From positions 1 to 34,547 of IMG/VR virus record IMGVR_UViG_3300050011_000549: a stretch of DNA of 34,547 bases. One strand, written 5' to 3'. Numbering within the stretch: position 1 is the stretch's first letter; every line of letters starts with the position of its first letter. Both the position numbers and the translations under genes were made by a program. The notes beneath the pieces are model-generated. The model was given only the letters and a program-made list of their open reading frames with translations, had not been told where the DNA came from and made no database searches. This DNA comes from a virus. Positions 16,405 to 22,154 of the stretch are shown piece after piece.

Positions 16405-16429
16405 CGTCTGGCTGAAACGCTTCAGGTCA
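16405..16429 (-). promoter_or_regulatory. Candidate late activator site upstream of gene I
   Basis: 25-bp element, identical at 23 positions to the one at 25993-26017, with core dyad CTGAA-ACGC-TTCAG at 16412-16425 (plus strand). It sits 69 bases upstream of gene I, where Mu has its late promoter PI. The two differing bases lie in the spacer of the dyad. Function as binding site of the Mor/C-type activator is inferred. Confidence 0.65.
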
Positions 16430-16744
16430 ACCGGGCCAGATCCCCGCCGATCTCCGCAACGCGCCGAGCCCCATAGAAGCCCTGTGAGCGCCTGACAGTG
16501 GCAAGGGCCATCCGAGGGCGGCTTTGCGCACAGACCCATCTCTCAGTCGGCTCTCATCGCTCCCATTCGCCCATTGCCGCGCCATTGCGCCGCTGCTGGT
16601 GCGTGAGGCCATGGCTGCGGTTGAACATCGCGCGTCCATGGCCTATATCGGCACTGCCAGTTTGAAGTAGAAAACCGCTATGTCCACGCGGCGATCCAAC
16701 AGATTGCCGAGATGAGGGAGCTAGGGCGTCCCTCCAGACCGGCA
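16430..16744. other. Gap of about 315 bases without a supported gene
   Basis: Between the F-like gene stop and the late element. The open frames here have arginine, serine and histidine-rich shadow composition and no good SD. A short minus-strand ORF (16554-16745, 63 codons) begins at a TGATG overlap with the F-like gene, but its sequence does not look like a protein. A hairpin with a six-bp stem (GAGGGA/TCCCTC, 16714-16734) lies just after the F-like stop. It may be a weak terminator separating the upstream operon from the operon started at the late element. Confidence 0.5.
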
Positions 16745-18043
16745 TCACTTCTCCCACACCACCTCGTAGGTTCCGGCGTTGTCCAGCGCATCGGCCGGCA
16801 CCAGGCTGGAATGCACCACGCCGTTGGTGAACAGCGGCCCGTGGCCCTTGGGGCTCCAACCCACTTCCATCACCACCTTGCCCGCGCGCGGGTCATCCTC
16901 GGGCGTGAACACATAGAGCAGGTTCTGCTTGGCCTTGTCCCACAGGATCTTGTCGGGCGCGGCCACCAGTTCGGGCAGCCGCATCAGATCGGCAACAGAG
17001 GTGGCATTGGGCACATGCTTCGCGGTGCCCTTCACGTGGCGCGCGTTGCGGAAGTGCATCAGCGCGTTGTCCTCCACCGTGATCGCGCCCGAGCTGGGCG
17101 TCACGTTGCGGGCGTCGAGGAAGTCCAGCGCCTCCTGCCGGATCGCGCCCACCACTCGCCGGTCGCCGTTGGGGCGGGCGCTTTCCAGCTTGCCATTGGC
17201 CCATTCCCCGAAGCCCCTGGTCAGATCATCGAGCATGAACTTCACGCTCTCGGCCGAGGCGGCGGCGGCGAGTTGCGGCGGATAGGCCACCCATTTGGAT
17301 GCCGCCACGCGGGCCGCATGGATCTGCACCGCGACCTTGCCGGGGTTATAGCCAAAGCCGGGGTCCACGCCGATCGGCACCTCGGTCACCTCGCCGGTGC
17401 GCGCGTTGATGTAGGTTTGGGTGGGTGACGCCGGCGGCGAGGCCAGTTTCAGCCCCTCCTGATGCAGCTCGATGTCGGAGAGGAAGCGCCAGTCGCAGCG
17501 GCAGTTCCAGCCACAGGGCGTGGCGTGCGTCTGCGCCCAGTCGCTATCCATGTGCACCACGGTGCCATCCCACTCCAGGTGAAGCGGCCGCGTATGGTCA
17601 TCATGGATCGCGCAATACTGGCCGTAGGGATGCGTGGCCTTCGTCGCCTCGGCCTTGGTCCATTTGCCAGCCGAGTAGGCCATGCGCGTGTTCACATCGA
17701 AGATCGTCTGCAGCCGGCGTGGGCTGCCCAGCTGGGCGACCTGAAGCTGCCCGGTCTCGGGATCTGGCGCGAGGCCACGGCCCCACCAGCCCTTGGCCTG
17801 CAGCGTGGGCGTCAGGGTCTTCTTGAAGTCGGCGAAGGTGGTGCCGTTCGCCATCGCGTCGACCAGGGCGGCATGGATATCGCCCAGCACGTCAAAGCCT
17901 GCGGATTTGGCCACGGTGAAGGCGGCAGCGTGATCGGCCTGCCACATGTCGCGCCAGTCGAAGGTGGGCGACAGCACGAAGCCCTTGGCCTTCAGATAGG
18001 CGATCGCCTCCTCGGGCGGCAGGGACTTCAGCTCAAGGGGCAT
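16745..18043 (-). CDS. F: Mu F-like minor head protein with C-terminal nuclease-like (PBECR-type) domain
   Basis: 432 residues. Residues about 60-190 are the Mu F / SPP1 gp7 head morphogenesis domain: GSPRRLQTIFDVNTRMAYSAGKW, then a Cys/His patch, C144-x2-H147, H150, DGTVVH, and HATPCGWNCRCDWRFLSD ending with C177, C181, C183. Residues about 295-430 are a second domain: an ITVEDNALMHFRNARHVKGTAKHVPN segment, LPELVAAPDKILWDK, then LLYVFTPE and a C-terminal strand pair ending in AGTYEVVWEK. This resembles the PBECR fold (barnase-EndoU-colicin E5/D-RelE-like) known at the C-terminus of other F-type proteins. The F domain is minor head/neck; the C-terminal domain may be carried into the cell. The ATG at 18043 overlaps the DUF2786 gene by 11 bases. 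Confidence 0.88.
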   Translation of the reverse strand: MPLELKSLPPEEAIAYLKAKGFVLSPTFDWRDMWQADHAAAFTVAKSAGFDVLGDIHAALVDAMANGTTFADFKKTLTPTLQAKGWWGRGLAPDPETGQLQVAQLGSPRRLQTIFDVNTRMAYSAGKWTKAEATKATHPYGQYCAIHDDHTRPLHLEWDGTVVHMDSDWAQTHATPCGWNCRCDWRFLSDIELHQEGLKLASPPASPTQTYINARTGEVTEVPIGVDPGFGYNPGKVAVQIHAARVAASKWVAYPPQLAAAASAESVKFMLDDLTRGFGEWANGKLESARPNGDRRVVGAIRQEALDFLDARNVTPSSGAITVEDNALMHFRNARHVKGTAKHVPNATSVADLMRLPELVAAPDKILWDKAKQNLLYVFTPEDDPRAGKVVMEVGWSPKGHGPLFTNGVVHSSLVPADALDNAGTYEVVWEK

Positions 18044-18722
18044 GCGGGAGTGCCTTCCTACCGCCAGAGCTACCACCGACCGCACCATGCAATTCGACTT
18101 CGCGACCGAGCACGTGGCCGGCCCAATAATCCATTGATGTGTCGCGGCCTTTGGTCGATGCGGCACGGGCGCTCACGGTCGTAAGCGCATCGCCATAGCG
18201 TCGCTCGATGTACTGCCCAACCCGATCGTCTACCGGTTGCCGTGGCATCAGCTTTTTGACCTGGCTGTAGACGGAAGAGGCCCAAGCCTCGCAAAACACA
18301 TCTGCTCGCTGCCGCTTCCGGGCCAGAGAACAACGCTTCAGACGGGTGCGGGTATATTCAGCCCGTTCGGCCTTCAGCTTGCGAAACAGCACTGCGAAGG
18401 CATAGGCTGCCACTTGGGGAGCGGCCCCGCGACCAATATAGATCCGTTTGCCGTCGGCGCCGACCAACACTGTGACGCCCAGCGCATGCTGAATGGTTTG
18501 GCAGAGGGCAACTTCCCACAGTGGCGCGCGCTGGGCACAATTTCCCTTCACGCTTTCCTCGCTGATTTCCGAGAGCAGAATATCCTCTTGCGTGATGCCA
18601 TGAGCGTCCATCAGTTCGCGCGCTTTACCGATGGCGGCGGCAGCTTCATGCTCGTTGCTGCTCTTCCCCAGAGCGAGACATTTGCGGATACGGGCTAGCA
18701 GATCGGCCTTGGGCTCAGCCAT
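18033..18722 (-). CDS. DUF2786 protein (229 aa)
   Basis: The N-terminus (residues 7-45) matches DUF2786: LLARIRKCLALGKSSNEHEAAAAIGKARELMDAHGI. The remainder (to residue 229) has a LCQTIQHALGVTVLVGADGKRIYIG strand segment, a basic RTRLKRCSLARKRQRADVF stretch and a CEAWASSVYSQVKKLM helix, typical of the second domain found with DUF2786. The function is not known; DUF2786 proteins are frequent in prophages and have been suggested to bind nucleic acid. This part of the window has visibly lower GC than neighbouring genes. ATG at 18722 or GTG at 18725 are both possible; both overlap the upstream stop. Confidence 0.8.
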   Translation of the reverse strand: MAEPKADLLARIRKCLALGKSSNEHEAAAAIGKARELMDAHGITQEDILLSEISEESVKGNCAQRAPLWEVALCQTIQHALGVTVLVGADGKRIYIGRGAAPQVAAYAFAVLFRKLKAERAEYTRTRLKRCSLARKRQRADVFCEAWASSVYSQVKKLMPRQPVDDRVGQYIERRYGDALTTVSARAASTKGRDTSMDYWAGHVLGREVELHGAVGGSSGGRKALPHAP

Positions 18723-18931
18723 CACGCGCCCCGCCGGATACGATCGCGGTTGGCTCGACGCGCGGCCTTCACGGCAGCCCGCTTTGACGATGGCACGTTA
18801 CTGGGTTTGGGGCGCCTTGGTCGATGGTATGATCTAGGGCTCGGACGGTCCCACAACAGAAGCGGGGGGAGCAGGATCGGACAGTAGTATTCATCTCGGA
18901 ACACATACGTCGAATGCACCTCGGCCATCAT
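18722..18931 (-). CDS. Small basic protein (69 aa), unknown
   Basis: Not recognised. Residues 9-27 are hydrophobic and aromatic (YVFRDEYYCPILLPPLLLW), followed by a strongly basic tail, RRPKPSNVPSSKRAAVKAARRANRDRIRRG. The start overlaps the portal TGA as ATGA, and the stop overlaps the DUF2786 start as TGATG, so it is joined to both. The basic tail could bind DNA. Composition is lower in GC than the flanking phage genes, so it may have arrived with the DUF2786 gene. Confidence 0.6.
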   Translation of the reverse strand: MMAEVHSTYVFRDEYYCPILLPPLLLWDRPSPRSYHRPRRPKPSNVPSSKRAAVKAARRANRDRIRRGA

Positions 18932-20607
18932 GCATCTCCCGCGATCGGCGCGCCGGTCAGCCCGGCCAGGCGCGCGGCGAAGGCGGAGCGGGCGAGCATC
19001 TCGGCCAGCTTGGCGGGGTCCTGGTCCTTCATCAGTCCGGCCAGCCCCGCCTGAAACTCCTCCATCGTGGTGCTGTGCTCCAGCAGCTCGGCCACGGGAT
19101 CGGTCATCGGCGAGACCAGCGGCTGCCAGTCGGCTAACTGCTCGGCCTGAAGCGCGTCCAGCGCATCATTCACCGGAGCCGCCGCCTGCGGCAGCTGGGC
19201 CGCGACAGCTACCTTGCCGCCGGGGCCTGGCAGCGCGAGCGGATCGCCACTATCGCCGCCACCGCCGTCTCCGCCATCCGGCGCGAAGGGCGAGGGCGGC
19301 GGTGCGGGCGCGGCCAGCAGGATATCATCCGGCGCCGGCTCTGGTACGCCCAGCTTGCCAGCCAGCCATAGCTCGCTCACCCGGCCACCCAGCGCCACGA
19401 AGGTTTTGACGTTGCCCACCAACGCGGTGACATCCTCACTCTCCGGCTCGCCGATGGTCACCTTGGGCAGCCGCGCACCGGTGCCGATATTGAACATGAT
19501 CAGCGGCCGGGCGAGATCGCGGACCAGCGGCGTGGCTAGCTGCACACCATCATCATCGCGGATGTCGCCGCGCACATGCTCATGGGCATCGGCGGTGCCC
19601 ACATAGGCCGCCGTGTCGGAGGTGCCCGTCTGCCCCAACACCAGCTTGGAGATCTGGTTGTTCCACCAATCCAGATTGCCCTGGTGCAGCGTGCCGCCCG
19701 TGGTGGTGGGCGGATCGATAAAGTCGATCGACATGGTGTCGGGGATGATTGCGGCCGCATCCATGGAGATGTTGCGCACCGCACGCAGCAGGGTGGCCTT
19801 CTCCTCACGCGAGGCGGAGTTGTTGTATTTGCCCAGGCGCAACGGATGGCCATAGACCTCCAGGAAGATCGCCCAGCTCTTGGTGGTGAAGTTCTGAAAC
19901 ATGTATGCCCAGGCCGCTGGCCGGCTGAGCGCACCCCGGATCGGGATGCCGCTTTTGGAGCGGTGGATGTGGGTGATGTATTTGCCGAAGGGCAATGGCG
20001 TGCCGAAATTGCCGCGCGCCGCCTCGGCCGGGTCGATCTGCAGCGAGTTCGAACCATCGCCGGGTCCACCACGCAACAGAATGGTGGTGCCGTCAACCCG
20101 ATCGGGTACGAACCATTGCGGGCGTCGCCACAGGATCTTGTCGGGACGCCATTCCGTCGCCTGCTGATCCCAGATGATCTCCGACACCGAATAGCCCTTG
20201 CCGATGGCATCGAGCATGTCGAACAGGGCGCCCTTGACGGTCGCGCTGTCCATCACCTCGCGAGTGATATCGGCCGCGCGCTGGTCGATGGCATCGGTGG
20301 ATGCCGCCTCCACCTGAATGGGCAACGCCGAGACCTGAAGCTTGCGGGTCGCCAGCACCGATCGGTAGTGCAGGTACTTCTCTTCCATGCTCTCGGCGAG
20401 ATCGAGCGCGGGGATGACATCGCCCATCTCCGCGCCCTTGAGGATCACGGCCAGGCGGTACGGATCGAGCCCCTCTTCCGGGTGTCCCGCCATGATGGTG
20501 CGGATGCCGGCGATGGTGGCGGCGGCCTGCTCGCTCTTCAGCACTTCGGGATCGGGAATGCCGAGAGCCTGCCCCAGCACCTTGGCCACTTTGTCAAACA
20601 GTCCCAT
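18928..20607 (-). CDS. Portal protein, DUF935 family (Mu gp29)
   Basis: 559 residues, similar to Mu gp29 (512). Recognised from the N-terminal TIAGIRTIMAGHPEEGLDPYRLAVILKGAE, MEEKYLHYRSVLATRKLQVSALP, GYSVSEIIWD, and RRPQWFVPD motifs, the AWAYMFQNFTTKSWAIFLEVYGHPLRLGKYN run (around residue 245-275), and the WWNNQISKLVLGQTGTSD helix. Residues about 435-465 are a Pro/Gly/Asp-rich linker (GGDGGGGDSGD), then a C-terminal helical part. The start at ATG 20607 shares its A with the terminase TGA (TGATG). Portals form the dodecameric DNA channel at the head vertex. Confidence 0.94.
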   Translation of the reverse strand: MGLFDKVAKVLGQALGIPDPEVLKSEQAAATIAGIRTIMAGHPEEGLDPYRLAVILKGAEMGDVIPALDLAESMEEKYLHYRSVLATRKLQVSALPIQVEAASTDAIDQRAADITREVMDSATVKGALFDMLDAIGKGYSVSEIIWDQQATEWRPDKILWRRPQWFVPDRVDGTTILLRGGPGDGSNSLQIDPAEAARGNFGTPLPFGKYITHIHRSKSGIPIRGALSRPAAWAYMFQNFTTKSWAIFLEVYGHPLRLGKYNNSASREEKATLLRAVRNISMDAAAIIPDTMSIDFIDPPTTTGGTLHQGNLDWWNNQISKLVLGQTGTSDTAAYVGTADAHEHVRGDIRDDDGVQLATPLVRDLARPLIMFNIGTGARLPKVTIGEPESEDVTALVGNVKTFVALGGRVSELWLAGKLGVPEPAPDDILLAAPAPPPSPFAPDGGDGGGGDSGDPLALPGPGGKVAVAAQLPQAAAPVNDALDALQAEQLADWQPLVSPMTDPVAELLEHSTTMEEFQAGLAGLMKDQDPAKLAEMLARSAFAARLAGLTGAPIAGDA

Positions 20608-22154
20608 CACCAGCACCCATCATTGAAGGTCAGGCCGCCCGATCCGGCCACCTCGTCGTCGTCGTCACGGGAACGCGTGGGCAGCGAGCGGGCAGAGGTG
20701 TACTCGTATTCCACCACGTCCATTCGGCTTGCGAAGACTGCCAAGGCGCCCGCGATCGCGCTGTCACCATGGCGCTTGCCGCCATCCTTGCCCTTGGTGC
20801 GCTCGGGCACGCGGGCCACGCCCTGGACCATGACCACGACGCGGTGATCGGCCAGCACGTCGGCATCCTTGGGGATGATGATCGTGCGGTCCTCGAACGC
20901 CGCTTTGTAGCGGGGCATGTTGTCGCGGTACCATTCAACGCTGAGCATGACCTGGCTGATGCGACCTGCGCCCCAGCGCTGCATGGCACGCTCGGCCAGA
21001 TACTGTCCGTTGCCGCGCGCATCGAGCGCACCGGCCTGAAGCCGTGGCAGCCGATCGCCAACGTAATAGAGGATCTGCTCCTGCTGCCGGAATGGCACGT
21101 TGCGCAGCTCGACCACGAAGGGCGTGCGCGCTTTCAGATCCTGCCCGATCAGCAATGGCCAGATTACCGAGAGATCGCCGCTGCGGCCAAAGTCCATGCC
21201 GAAGACCGAGCGCCACAGCTCTGGATCGAGCCGCTTCAGCAGCGGCAGCAATTCCCGCTCGCACCAATCGGCACATTCCGCCTCGCGGATATGGTCTGGC
21301 AGCTCGGCAAAGCTGGTGGGATAGGCCAGGCGCACCACCGGGATGTCCGGCTCCATGCACTTTTCCAGAATGGCGAGGCTGAGGAAGGTGCCCGAGCCTT
21401 CGTTGGGAATGCAGAACAGCTCCTCGTCTGCGCCATCGCCGTAAAAGGCGATGATCTCCGCGCGCCAGACGGCTTCCTTCTCGGCCGACCATTCCTCGCC
21501 CTTGGTGTAGCAGATCCGCTGATACAGCCCGTCGGCCAGCGCATCGTCGAATGTGCAGCGCAGCAGCTTGTAGGGCTTGCGGCCCGCGCGGATGTCATTG
21601 ACCAGCGTGTTGAACGGATTGGCATCGCCATTGTGGGTGGAGATCACCACCACGCGGCCTCCCCAGATCAGCAGCGCGAAGGCAGACTTCAGCAGCTCAT
21701 CCAGATCATCGTGGAACGCAGCTTCGTCGATGATGACCATGCCCTGCATACCGCGCAAGGATCGCGGGCAGGATGGCAGAGCCAGCACCTTGAAGCCGCT
21801 GGCGAACTCCACGCGGAAGGCCTTGATCTCCTTGTCCGGGTGTTCGGGATCGGTCCAGAACGTTTCCTCGACCGCGACAACGGCCGTCTGCAGGTGCCGT
21901 GCCCAGTCCGCGACATAGTCGATGAACTCGCGGGCCATCTCCAGATTGTAGCCGATGTAGAAGGCGTCCATGCCACCGGCCGACTTGTCGGCGGCAGCGA
22001 CCATCGCGGCATCGGCGGCGATCGCCCAGGAGTATCCGGTGCGCCGGCTCTTCTCCACCACTGTCACCGCATAGTGCGAGACGGTCCGCATCAGCTCCTG
22101 CTGATAGCGCAGGAAAACGTCTGGTGGCGCGGCGGGCGCGGCGGCCGCAACCAT
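20607..22154 (-). CDS. Terminase large subunit (Mu gp28)
   Basis: 515 residues (Mu gp28 is 551). ATPase part: a Walker A-type segment at residues 34-43 (EKSRRTGYSW), Walker B at 139-144 with D143 and E144 (MVIIDEAAF), and coupling motif VVISTHNG at 169-176. Nuclease part (RNase H-like): D321 in FGMDFGRSGD, D378 in GALDARGNGQ, D464 in GKRHGDSAIAGALA. In this family the protein packages DNA and cuts the concatemer or, in Mu-like phages, cuts host-flanked DNA outside the phage ends. The start ATG shares a base with the stop of DUF3486 (TAATG). Confidence 0.95.
   Translation of the reverse strand: MVAAAAPAAPPDVFLRYQQELMRTVSHYAVTVVEKSRRTGYSWAIAADAAMVAAADKSAGGMDAFYIGYNLEMAREFIDYVADWARHLQTAVVAVEETFWTDPEHPDKEIKAFRVEFASGFKVLALPSCPRSLRGMQGMVIIDEAAFHDDLDELLKSAFALLIWGGRVVVISTHNGDANPFNTLVNDIRAGRKPYKLLRCTFDDALADGLYQRICYTKGEEWSAEKEAVWRAEIIAFYGDGADEELFCIPNEGSGTFLSLAILEKCMEPDIPVVRLAYPTSFAELPDHIREAECADWCERELLPLLKRLDPELWRSVFGMDFGRSGDLSVIWPLLIGQDLKARTPFVVELRNVPFRQQEQILYYVGDRLPRLQAGALDARGNGQYLAERAMQRWGAGRISQVMLSVEWYRDNMPRYKAAFEDRTIIIPKDADVLADHRVVVMVQGVARVPERTKGKDGGKRHGDSAIAGALAVFASRMDVVEYEYTSARSLPTRSRDDDDEVAGSGGLTFNDGCW

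What the first reader, a model, noticed from the sequence alone, without database searches (positions are those of the whole stretch)
16745..17160. F-like minor head protein ends in a PBECR-type nuclease-like domain
Residues about 295-430 are not part of the normal F domain. They have the H-x-x-x-x-R plus L-P-x-(L/V)-(L/V)-x-x-P-D and LLYVF strand pattern that I associate with the barnase/EndoU/colicin E5-D/RelE-like fold known to be fused to F and other polyvalent phage proteins. Being carried in the head, such a domain could enter the host with the DNA and cleave RNA, acting against host or rival phages.
Basis: partly seen in the sequence, partly recalled or inferred. Interest (0 to 1): 0.7.

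Follow-up and report, generated by a model that had tools for sequence, protein, structure and literature searches.

The report
Mu-phage F protein with RNase-like tail
A Mu-like phage's internal head protein ends in a domain folded like the bacterial toxins that cut RNA, and this is a further, possibly still active, member of a domain already described at the end of phage Mu's own F protein, so it is mostly ordinary.

Summary
Gene F (window 16745-18043, minus strand, 432 aa) has a standard Phage_Mu_F domain followed by a separate C-terminal domain. AlphaFold2 models that domain confidently (pLDDT 93) as a helix plus four-strand meander. The best solved-structure matches are RNase toxins of the barnase/EndoU/colicin/RelE (BECR) fold: the top 19 rows for the core are BrnT, RelE, ParE/HigB and CDI toxins, Z 6.6 to 4.0. 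The quoted motifs and H330/R332/R335 are present.

The domain is not an unusual addition. A profile of its core recognises phage Mu gp30 (E 2e-15) and D3112 (E 8e-11), and Iyer et al. 2017 already named the Mu domain 'MuF-C', a PBECR domain. They judged it inactive in Mu and probably active in orthologues. This window is such an orthologue: it keeps the helix histidines (H330, H336) that Mu and D3112 lack, but has H411 where most relatives have T, N or S in strand 4.

Across relatives the C-terminus is exchanged (MuF-C types, PBECR2, ART, zincin-like or none; 18 changes on the F-domain tree). No immunity-type gene follows F. RNase activity, injection and toxicity remain inferences.

The parts
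16745..18043 (-). F-like minor head protein gene (432 aa), downstream of the Mu-type portal and upstream of the Mu-like protease
17492..17881 (-). Phage_Mu_F (MuF) domain, residues about 55-184
   Evidence: Pfam PF04233 E 1.1e-18; phrog_220 E 3.6e-86 'minor head protein and DNA pilot'
17099..17338 (-). Lead-in to the C-terminal domain, residues 236-315: long helices, one strand, one helix
   Evidence: AlphaFold2 model, pLDDT above 90 over most of it
16748..17098 (-). BECR-fold core (MuF-C/PBECR type), residues 316-432: helix plus four-strand meander plus a C-terminal strand
   Evidence: models; VIA-align to BrnT, RelE, ParE/HigB, CDI toxins; profile match to Mu gp30
17054..17056 (-). H330, candidate catalytic His in the N-terminal helix of the core
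   Evidence: His in 21 of 29 relatives; absent in Mu and D3112
17036..17038 (-). H336, second candidate His
   Evidence: His in 18 of 29 relatives, Lys in 9
16811..16813 (-). H411 in strand 4, at the column where relatives carry T (11), N (9) or S (3)
   Evidence: His only in the window, L001 and L073
16406..16744 (-). Interval between F and the protease reading frame with no convincing gene, so no immunity-type ORF

Best explanation
The C-terminal domain of this F protein is a MuF-C/PBECR-type domain of the BECR RNase fold. Shown here: the domain exists, is homologous to the Mu gp30 C-terminus, folds like BECR RNases, keeps the helix histidine(s) that Mu and D3112 have lost, and is under purifying selection. 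Inferred: a few copies are held inside the head through the F domain bound to the portal, enter the cell with the DNA, and the domain acts as a metal-independent endoribonuclease early in infection, with H330 and/or H336 and a strand-4 residue (H411 or a neighbouring serine) at the active site. The substrate is probably an RNA whose cleavage favours the phage (host or early phage mRNA, or a defence-related RNA) and not a lethal tRNA or rRNA target, because no immunity gene accompanies it.
For: Two confident models (pLDDT 93; 87). Top 19 VIA-align rows for the core are RelE/BrnT/ParE/HigB/CDI-type toxins, Z 6.6 to 4.0, and the first unrelated row comes at Z 3.9. Profile homology to Mu gp30 and D3112, with no shuffled hit. 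Relatives hit Pfam MuF_C (19 of 29) and PBECR3 (12 of 29), best E about 1e-5. Viral fold matches include entries named 'Phage MuF C-terminal domain-containing protein'. Iyer et al. 2017 call the Mu domain an inactive PBECR and predict RNase activity for orthologues with the active site (PMC5512222). H330 in 21 of 29 and H336 in 18 of 29 relatives. dN/dS 0.32-0.35 in the core against L001 and L073. Exchangeable C-termini, including enzyme domains. SPP1 gp7 is carried inside the capsid in a few copies (PMC6316719).
Against: VIA-align Z stays under 8 and Foldseek alone gives no significant PDB match, so fold assignment rests on the pattern of matches. Pfam cut-offs are not reached by the window protein (PBECR3 14.4 against 30 bits). 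The strand-4 S/T is replaced by His in this subgroup. Mu and D3112 are viable phages without the histidines, so catalysis is not needed in every such phage. Nothing here shows injection or RNase activity.
Confidence: 0.55

Rival explanations
1. The domain is a catalytically dead BECR fold, as proposed for Mu, serving as a nucleic-acid-binding or assembly module of the head protein.
For: Mu and D3112 lack both helix histidines and Iyer et al. judged Mu inactive and probably RNA-binding. Strand-4 S/T is His in the window group. The JBD30 paper calls gp33, which by gene order (next to portal gp32) may be the F homologue, a scaffolding protein (PMC11445458).
Against: H330 and H336 are kept in the window, L001 and L073 and H330 in 21 of 29 relatives. 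F versions ending soon after the F domain exist (17 loci classed 'short'), so the C-terminus is not needed for head assembly in general.
Confidence: 0.32
2. It is the toxin part of a MuF polymorphic toxin aimed at competing bacteria or rival phages, with a paired immunity protein.
For: MuF polymorphic toxins are established in temperate phages (PMC5576092). C-termini are exchanged in relatives, two of them recently: L006/L018 F parts 98% identical with last 135 residues 37%; L055/L066 95% and 26%.
Against: No small conserved ORF follows F in the window, L001 or L073, whereas 89% of MuF toxin genes are followed by one. F lies among late head genes, which makes expression only during particle production likely.
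Confidence: 0.1
3. The resemblance to BECR nucleases is coincidental and the domain is an unrelated alpha/beta fold.
For: VIA-align Z under 8 can reflect common arrangements (tool note); Foldseek PDB E-values are not significant.
Against: All of the top 19 rows are one superfamily, and sequence homology to the published MuF-C/PBECR domain is independent support.
Confidence: 0.03

Closest known systems
MuF-C domain (a PBECR family) of phage Mu F/gp30, Iyer et al. 2017, PMC5512222
   Same: Same position after the MuF domain, homologous sequence (E 2.3e-15 with the core profile), BECR fold
   Different: Mu has lost the helix segment with the histidines; the window keeps H330 and H336 but has His at the strand-4 position
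PBECR3 (Pfam PF18812)
   Same: Weak profile match over residues about 317-374 of the window protein (E 0.038) and stronger in relatives (best E 1.3e-5)
   Different: Below the curated cut-off
PBECR2 (Pfam PF18810) fused to MuF, as in L013, L058, L060
   Same: Alternative C-terminal nuclease-like domain on the same F protein
   Different: No detectable sequence similarity by hhalign
RelE/BrnT toxins and BECR CDI toxins (CdiA-CT EC3006, Kp342)
   Same: Helix plus four-strand meander; CdiA-CT EC3006 uses K204, Y208, H256, R260, T330 (PMC9086364)
   Different: No sequence similarity found; delivered by other systems or paired with antitoxins or immunity proteins
MuF polymorphic toxins, Jamet et al. 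2017, PMC5576092
   Same: MuF domain with an exchangeable C-terminus
   Different: No immunity-type ORF next to this F gene

Membership tests
MuF-C/PBECR clade (Iyer et al. 2017) | Homology to the C-terminal domain of Mu gp30 | tested here: met
   Core profile built without Mu hits Mu gp30 E 2.3e-15 and D3112 E 8e-11; 500 shuffles none
MuF-C/PBECR clade (Iyer et al. [quoted passage not shown]
   Models; top 19 VIA-align rows are BECR/RelE-superfamily toxins
MuF-C/PBECR clade (Iyer et al. 2017) | Histidine (Arg in one family) in the N-terminal helix | tested here: met
   H330 in helix 325-331, H336 in the next helix
MuF-C/PBECR clade (Iyer et al. 2017) | Ser/Thr in strand 4 (active members only; Mu counts as an inactive member) | tested here: inconclusive
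   Aligned residue is H411, followed by S412 and S413; a one-residue shift of register cannot be excluded
MuF-C/PBECR clade (Iyer et al. 2017) | RNase activity | not testable with these tools
   Predicted in the literature, no assay here
Pfam models PF18819 MuF_C and PF18812 PBECR3 as curated | Score above the curated cut-off | tested here: not met
   Window: PBECR3 14.4 against 30 bits, no MuF_C hit. Mu gp30 itself scores 21 against 27.6 bits for MuF_C. Not filed as a member of these models
Phage_Mu_F (PF04233) | Score above the curated cut-off, next to the portal gene | tested here: met
   68.5 against 29.6 bits; portal 18928-20616 upstream with one gene between
MuF polymorphic toxin | Exchangeable C-terminal domain on a constant MuF domain | tested here: met
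   18 changes of C-terminal type on the F-domain tree of 79 relatives; L006/L018 junction
MuF polymorphic toxin | Immunity gene directly downstream | tested here: not met
   No convincing ORF at 16406-16744 and no conserved one in L001 or L073. Not filed as a member
MuF polymorphic toxin | Toxicity of the C-terminal domain | not testable with these tools
   No assay here

The most novel reading that the evidence does not exclude
F proteins of Mu-like phages switch between catalytically armed (His-bearing) and unarmed (His-lacking) MuF-C domains by exchange of the gene's 3' end together with the adjoining accessory-gene slot, and the window's subgroup carries a variant active site (H330/H336/H411) in place of His plus Ser/Thr. 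Two near-identical F pairs (L006/L018 and L055/L066) differ in just this way.
Probability: 0.25. Interest if true: 0.5.

Novelty: new member of a known kind. Interest (0 to 1): 0.27.

Why it matters
Mu F is a classical head protein whose C-terminal domain has a published but untested prediction: inactive in Mu, RNase in orthologues. The window, L001 and L073 give histidine-bearing versions, and L006/L018 gives a natural pair with one F part and two different C-termini. That makes it possible to ask directly whether transposable phages deliver an RNase with their DNA. If not active, the finding is an ordinary annotation.

Tried and rejected
Pfam on the window domain alone: only PBECR3 below cut-off. 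PADLOC and NCBIfam gave nothing meaningful for the domain. No solved structure found by sequence. Searching MuF_C in 289 genomes of one class gave 2 hits and was not pursued. The idea that this is an abnormal fusion was rejected because Mu and D3112 have the domain. The idea of a neighbouring immunity gene was rejected for lack of an ORF. The upstream DUF2786/DUF7168 gene was considered as immunity and not adopted: it matches phrog_421, a phage family of unknown function, and no PADLOC model.

Full report
What is there. The window is a Mu-like transposable phage with a contractile tail: transposase A and B genes, tail sheath, Mu-type portal, Mu-like I protease and gpT major head protein; its record is a virus contig of 34,547 bases. 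The F gene runs from ATG 18043 to the stop ending at 16745 on the minus strand, 432 aa. The longer ORF starting at 18166 overlaps the upstream gene, and relatives L001 and L073 align from the 18043 start. Pfam Phage_Mu_F covers residues about 55-184; phrog_220, 'minor head protein and DNA pilot', extends over nearly the whole protein.

Not a foreign addition. tblastn places phage Mu gp30, D108, SfMu and D3112-like phages as homologues, with the alignment to D3112-like phages running to residue 429 and that to Mu to residue 383. A profile of the C-terminal part built without Mu or D3112 finds both at E about 2e-21. A profile of the nuclease-like core alone finds them at E 2.3e-15 and 8e-11, with no hit among 500 shuffled sequences. 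Both matches begin just after the helix that carries the histidines, which is the part Mu and D3112 have lost.

Fold. AlphaFold2 with 29 own and related sequences gives pLDDT 93.2 and pTM 0.88 for residues 236-432 and pLDDT 87 for residues 316-432 alone. The core is a strand, the helix with H330, short helices, then a four-strand meander and a last strand. VIA-align to solved structures gives BrnT, a Serratia CDI chain and RelE as top rows for the longer model (Z 4.4, 4.0, 3.7). For the core it gives BrnT Z 6.6 (76 residues, rmsd 3.3), a Salmonella toxin-antitoxin chain 6.2, RelE 5.5, RelE2 5.5 and so on, with 19 consecutive rows of this superfamily before the first unrelated one at Z 3.9. These Z values are modest and Foldseek alone is not significant, so the assignment leans on the consistency of the list and on the sequence link to MuF-C. 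In the viral structure library the matches with probability 1.00 include entries named MuF C-terminal domain proteins.

Literature. Iyer et al. [quoted passage not shown] The finding is therefore a further member of a described kind.

Active site. In 29 relatives His is found at 330 in 21 and at 336 in 18. D369 and G299 are invariant and Y377 nearly so. At the strand-4 column the letters are T 11, N 9, S 3, H 3; the three His are the window, L001 and L073. Active PBECR members are described with Ser/Thr there, and EndoU is listed with S, N or T (PMC3482391). Whether H411 substitutes, or S412/S413 takes the place, is open. dN/dS against L073 and L001 is 0.35 and 0.32 in the core, against 0.20 and 0.24 in the F part: constrained, but faster evolving.

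Exchange of the C-terminus. Among relatives found with the F protein, the C-terminus is MuF-C type A (41 loci, as here), type B (29; linked to A by hhalign, probability 94%), PBECR2 (3), ART with a kinase-like part (3), zincin-like HExxH (3), nearly absent (17) or unassigned (2). On the F-domain tree of 79 rows this needs 18 changes, of which only some are forced by well-supported branches. L018 and L006 are 93% identical in DNA through the F part, diverge at the start of the nuclease-like core, and become 93% identical again only after 1.8-2.8 kb. The replaced block holds the core and the accessory genes behind it; in L018 these are ShosA/ShosT-like defence genes. In D3112 the region just downstream of F and G holds an anti-CRISPR gene. 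L055/L066 is a second such pair (95% and 26%). In both pairs one partner has helix histidines and the other has none.

Mechanism. The likely course is carriage inside the head through the F-portal contact, entry with the DNA, and RNA cleavage early in infection. SPP1 gp7, a MuF protein, is targeted to the procapsid interior by the portal in a few copies and supports the start of infection (PMC6316719), but injection of this protein is inference. The absence of an immunity-type gene and the late position of F argue against a classic toxin-immunity pair. The dead-domain reading remains a strong rival because Mu and D3112 live without the histidines.

Verdict. Observation confirmed; interpretation right on fold and family, wrong that the domain is foreign to normal F, untested on activity. 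A new member of a known kind.

Noticed in passing
L018:747-3575 against L006:4915-6754: In two nearly identical Mu-like phages (93% DNA identity on both sides) the 3' end of F and the genes behind it are replaced as one block; in L018 the block holds ShosA- and ShosT-like genes (PADLOC E 1.7e-98, 8e-40, 8e-10).
   Followed up: partly
L055:3929-5281 and L066:3953-5215: Second pair with 95% identical F parts and only 26% identity over the last 135 residues; one keeps a helix histidine, the other has none.
   Followed up: partly
window 18033-18725 (-): DUF2786 plus DUF7168 protein (phrog_421) wedged between portal and F, overlapping the F start by 11 bases; function unknown.
   Followed up: no
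L023:3983-6085 and L029:3917-7225: F proteins with a kinase-like segment (weak HipA_C in L029) and a C-terminal ADP-ribosyltransferase domain (ART E 3.5e-11 in L029).
   Followed up: no
L060:3797-6259: F protein with an intein-like segment between the MuF domain and a PBECR2 domain.
   Followed up: no
L019, L028, L067 C-termini of F: HExxH zincin-like C-terminal domains on F; L028 matches the ATLF model weakly (E 5e-4, below cut-off).
   Followed up: no
window 16406-16744: About 340 bases between F and the protease frame with no convincing gene, at the place where related phages carry accessory genes.
   Followed up: partly
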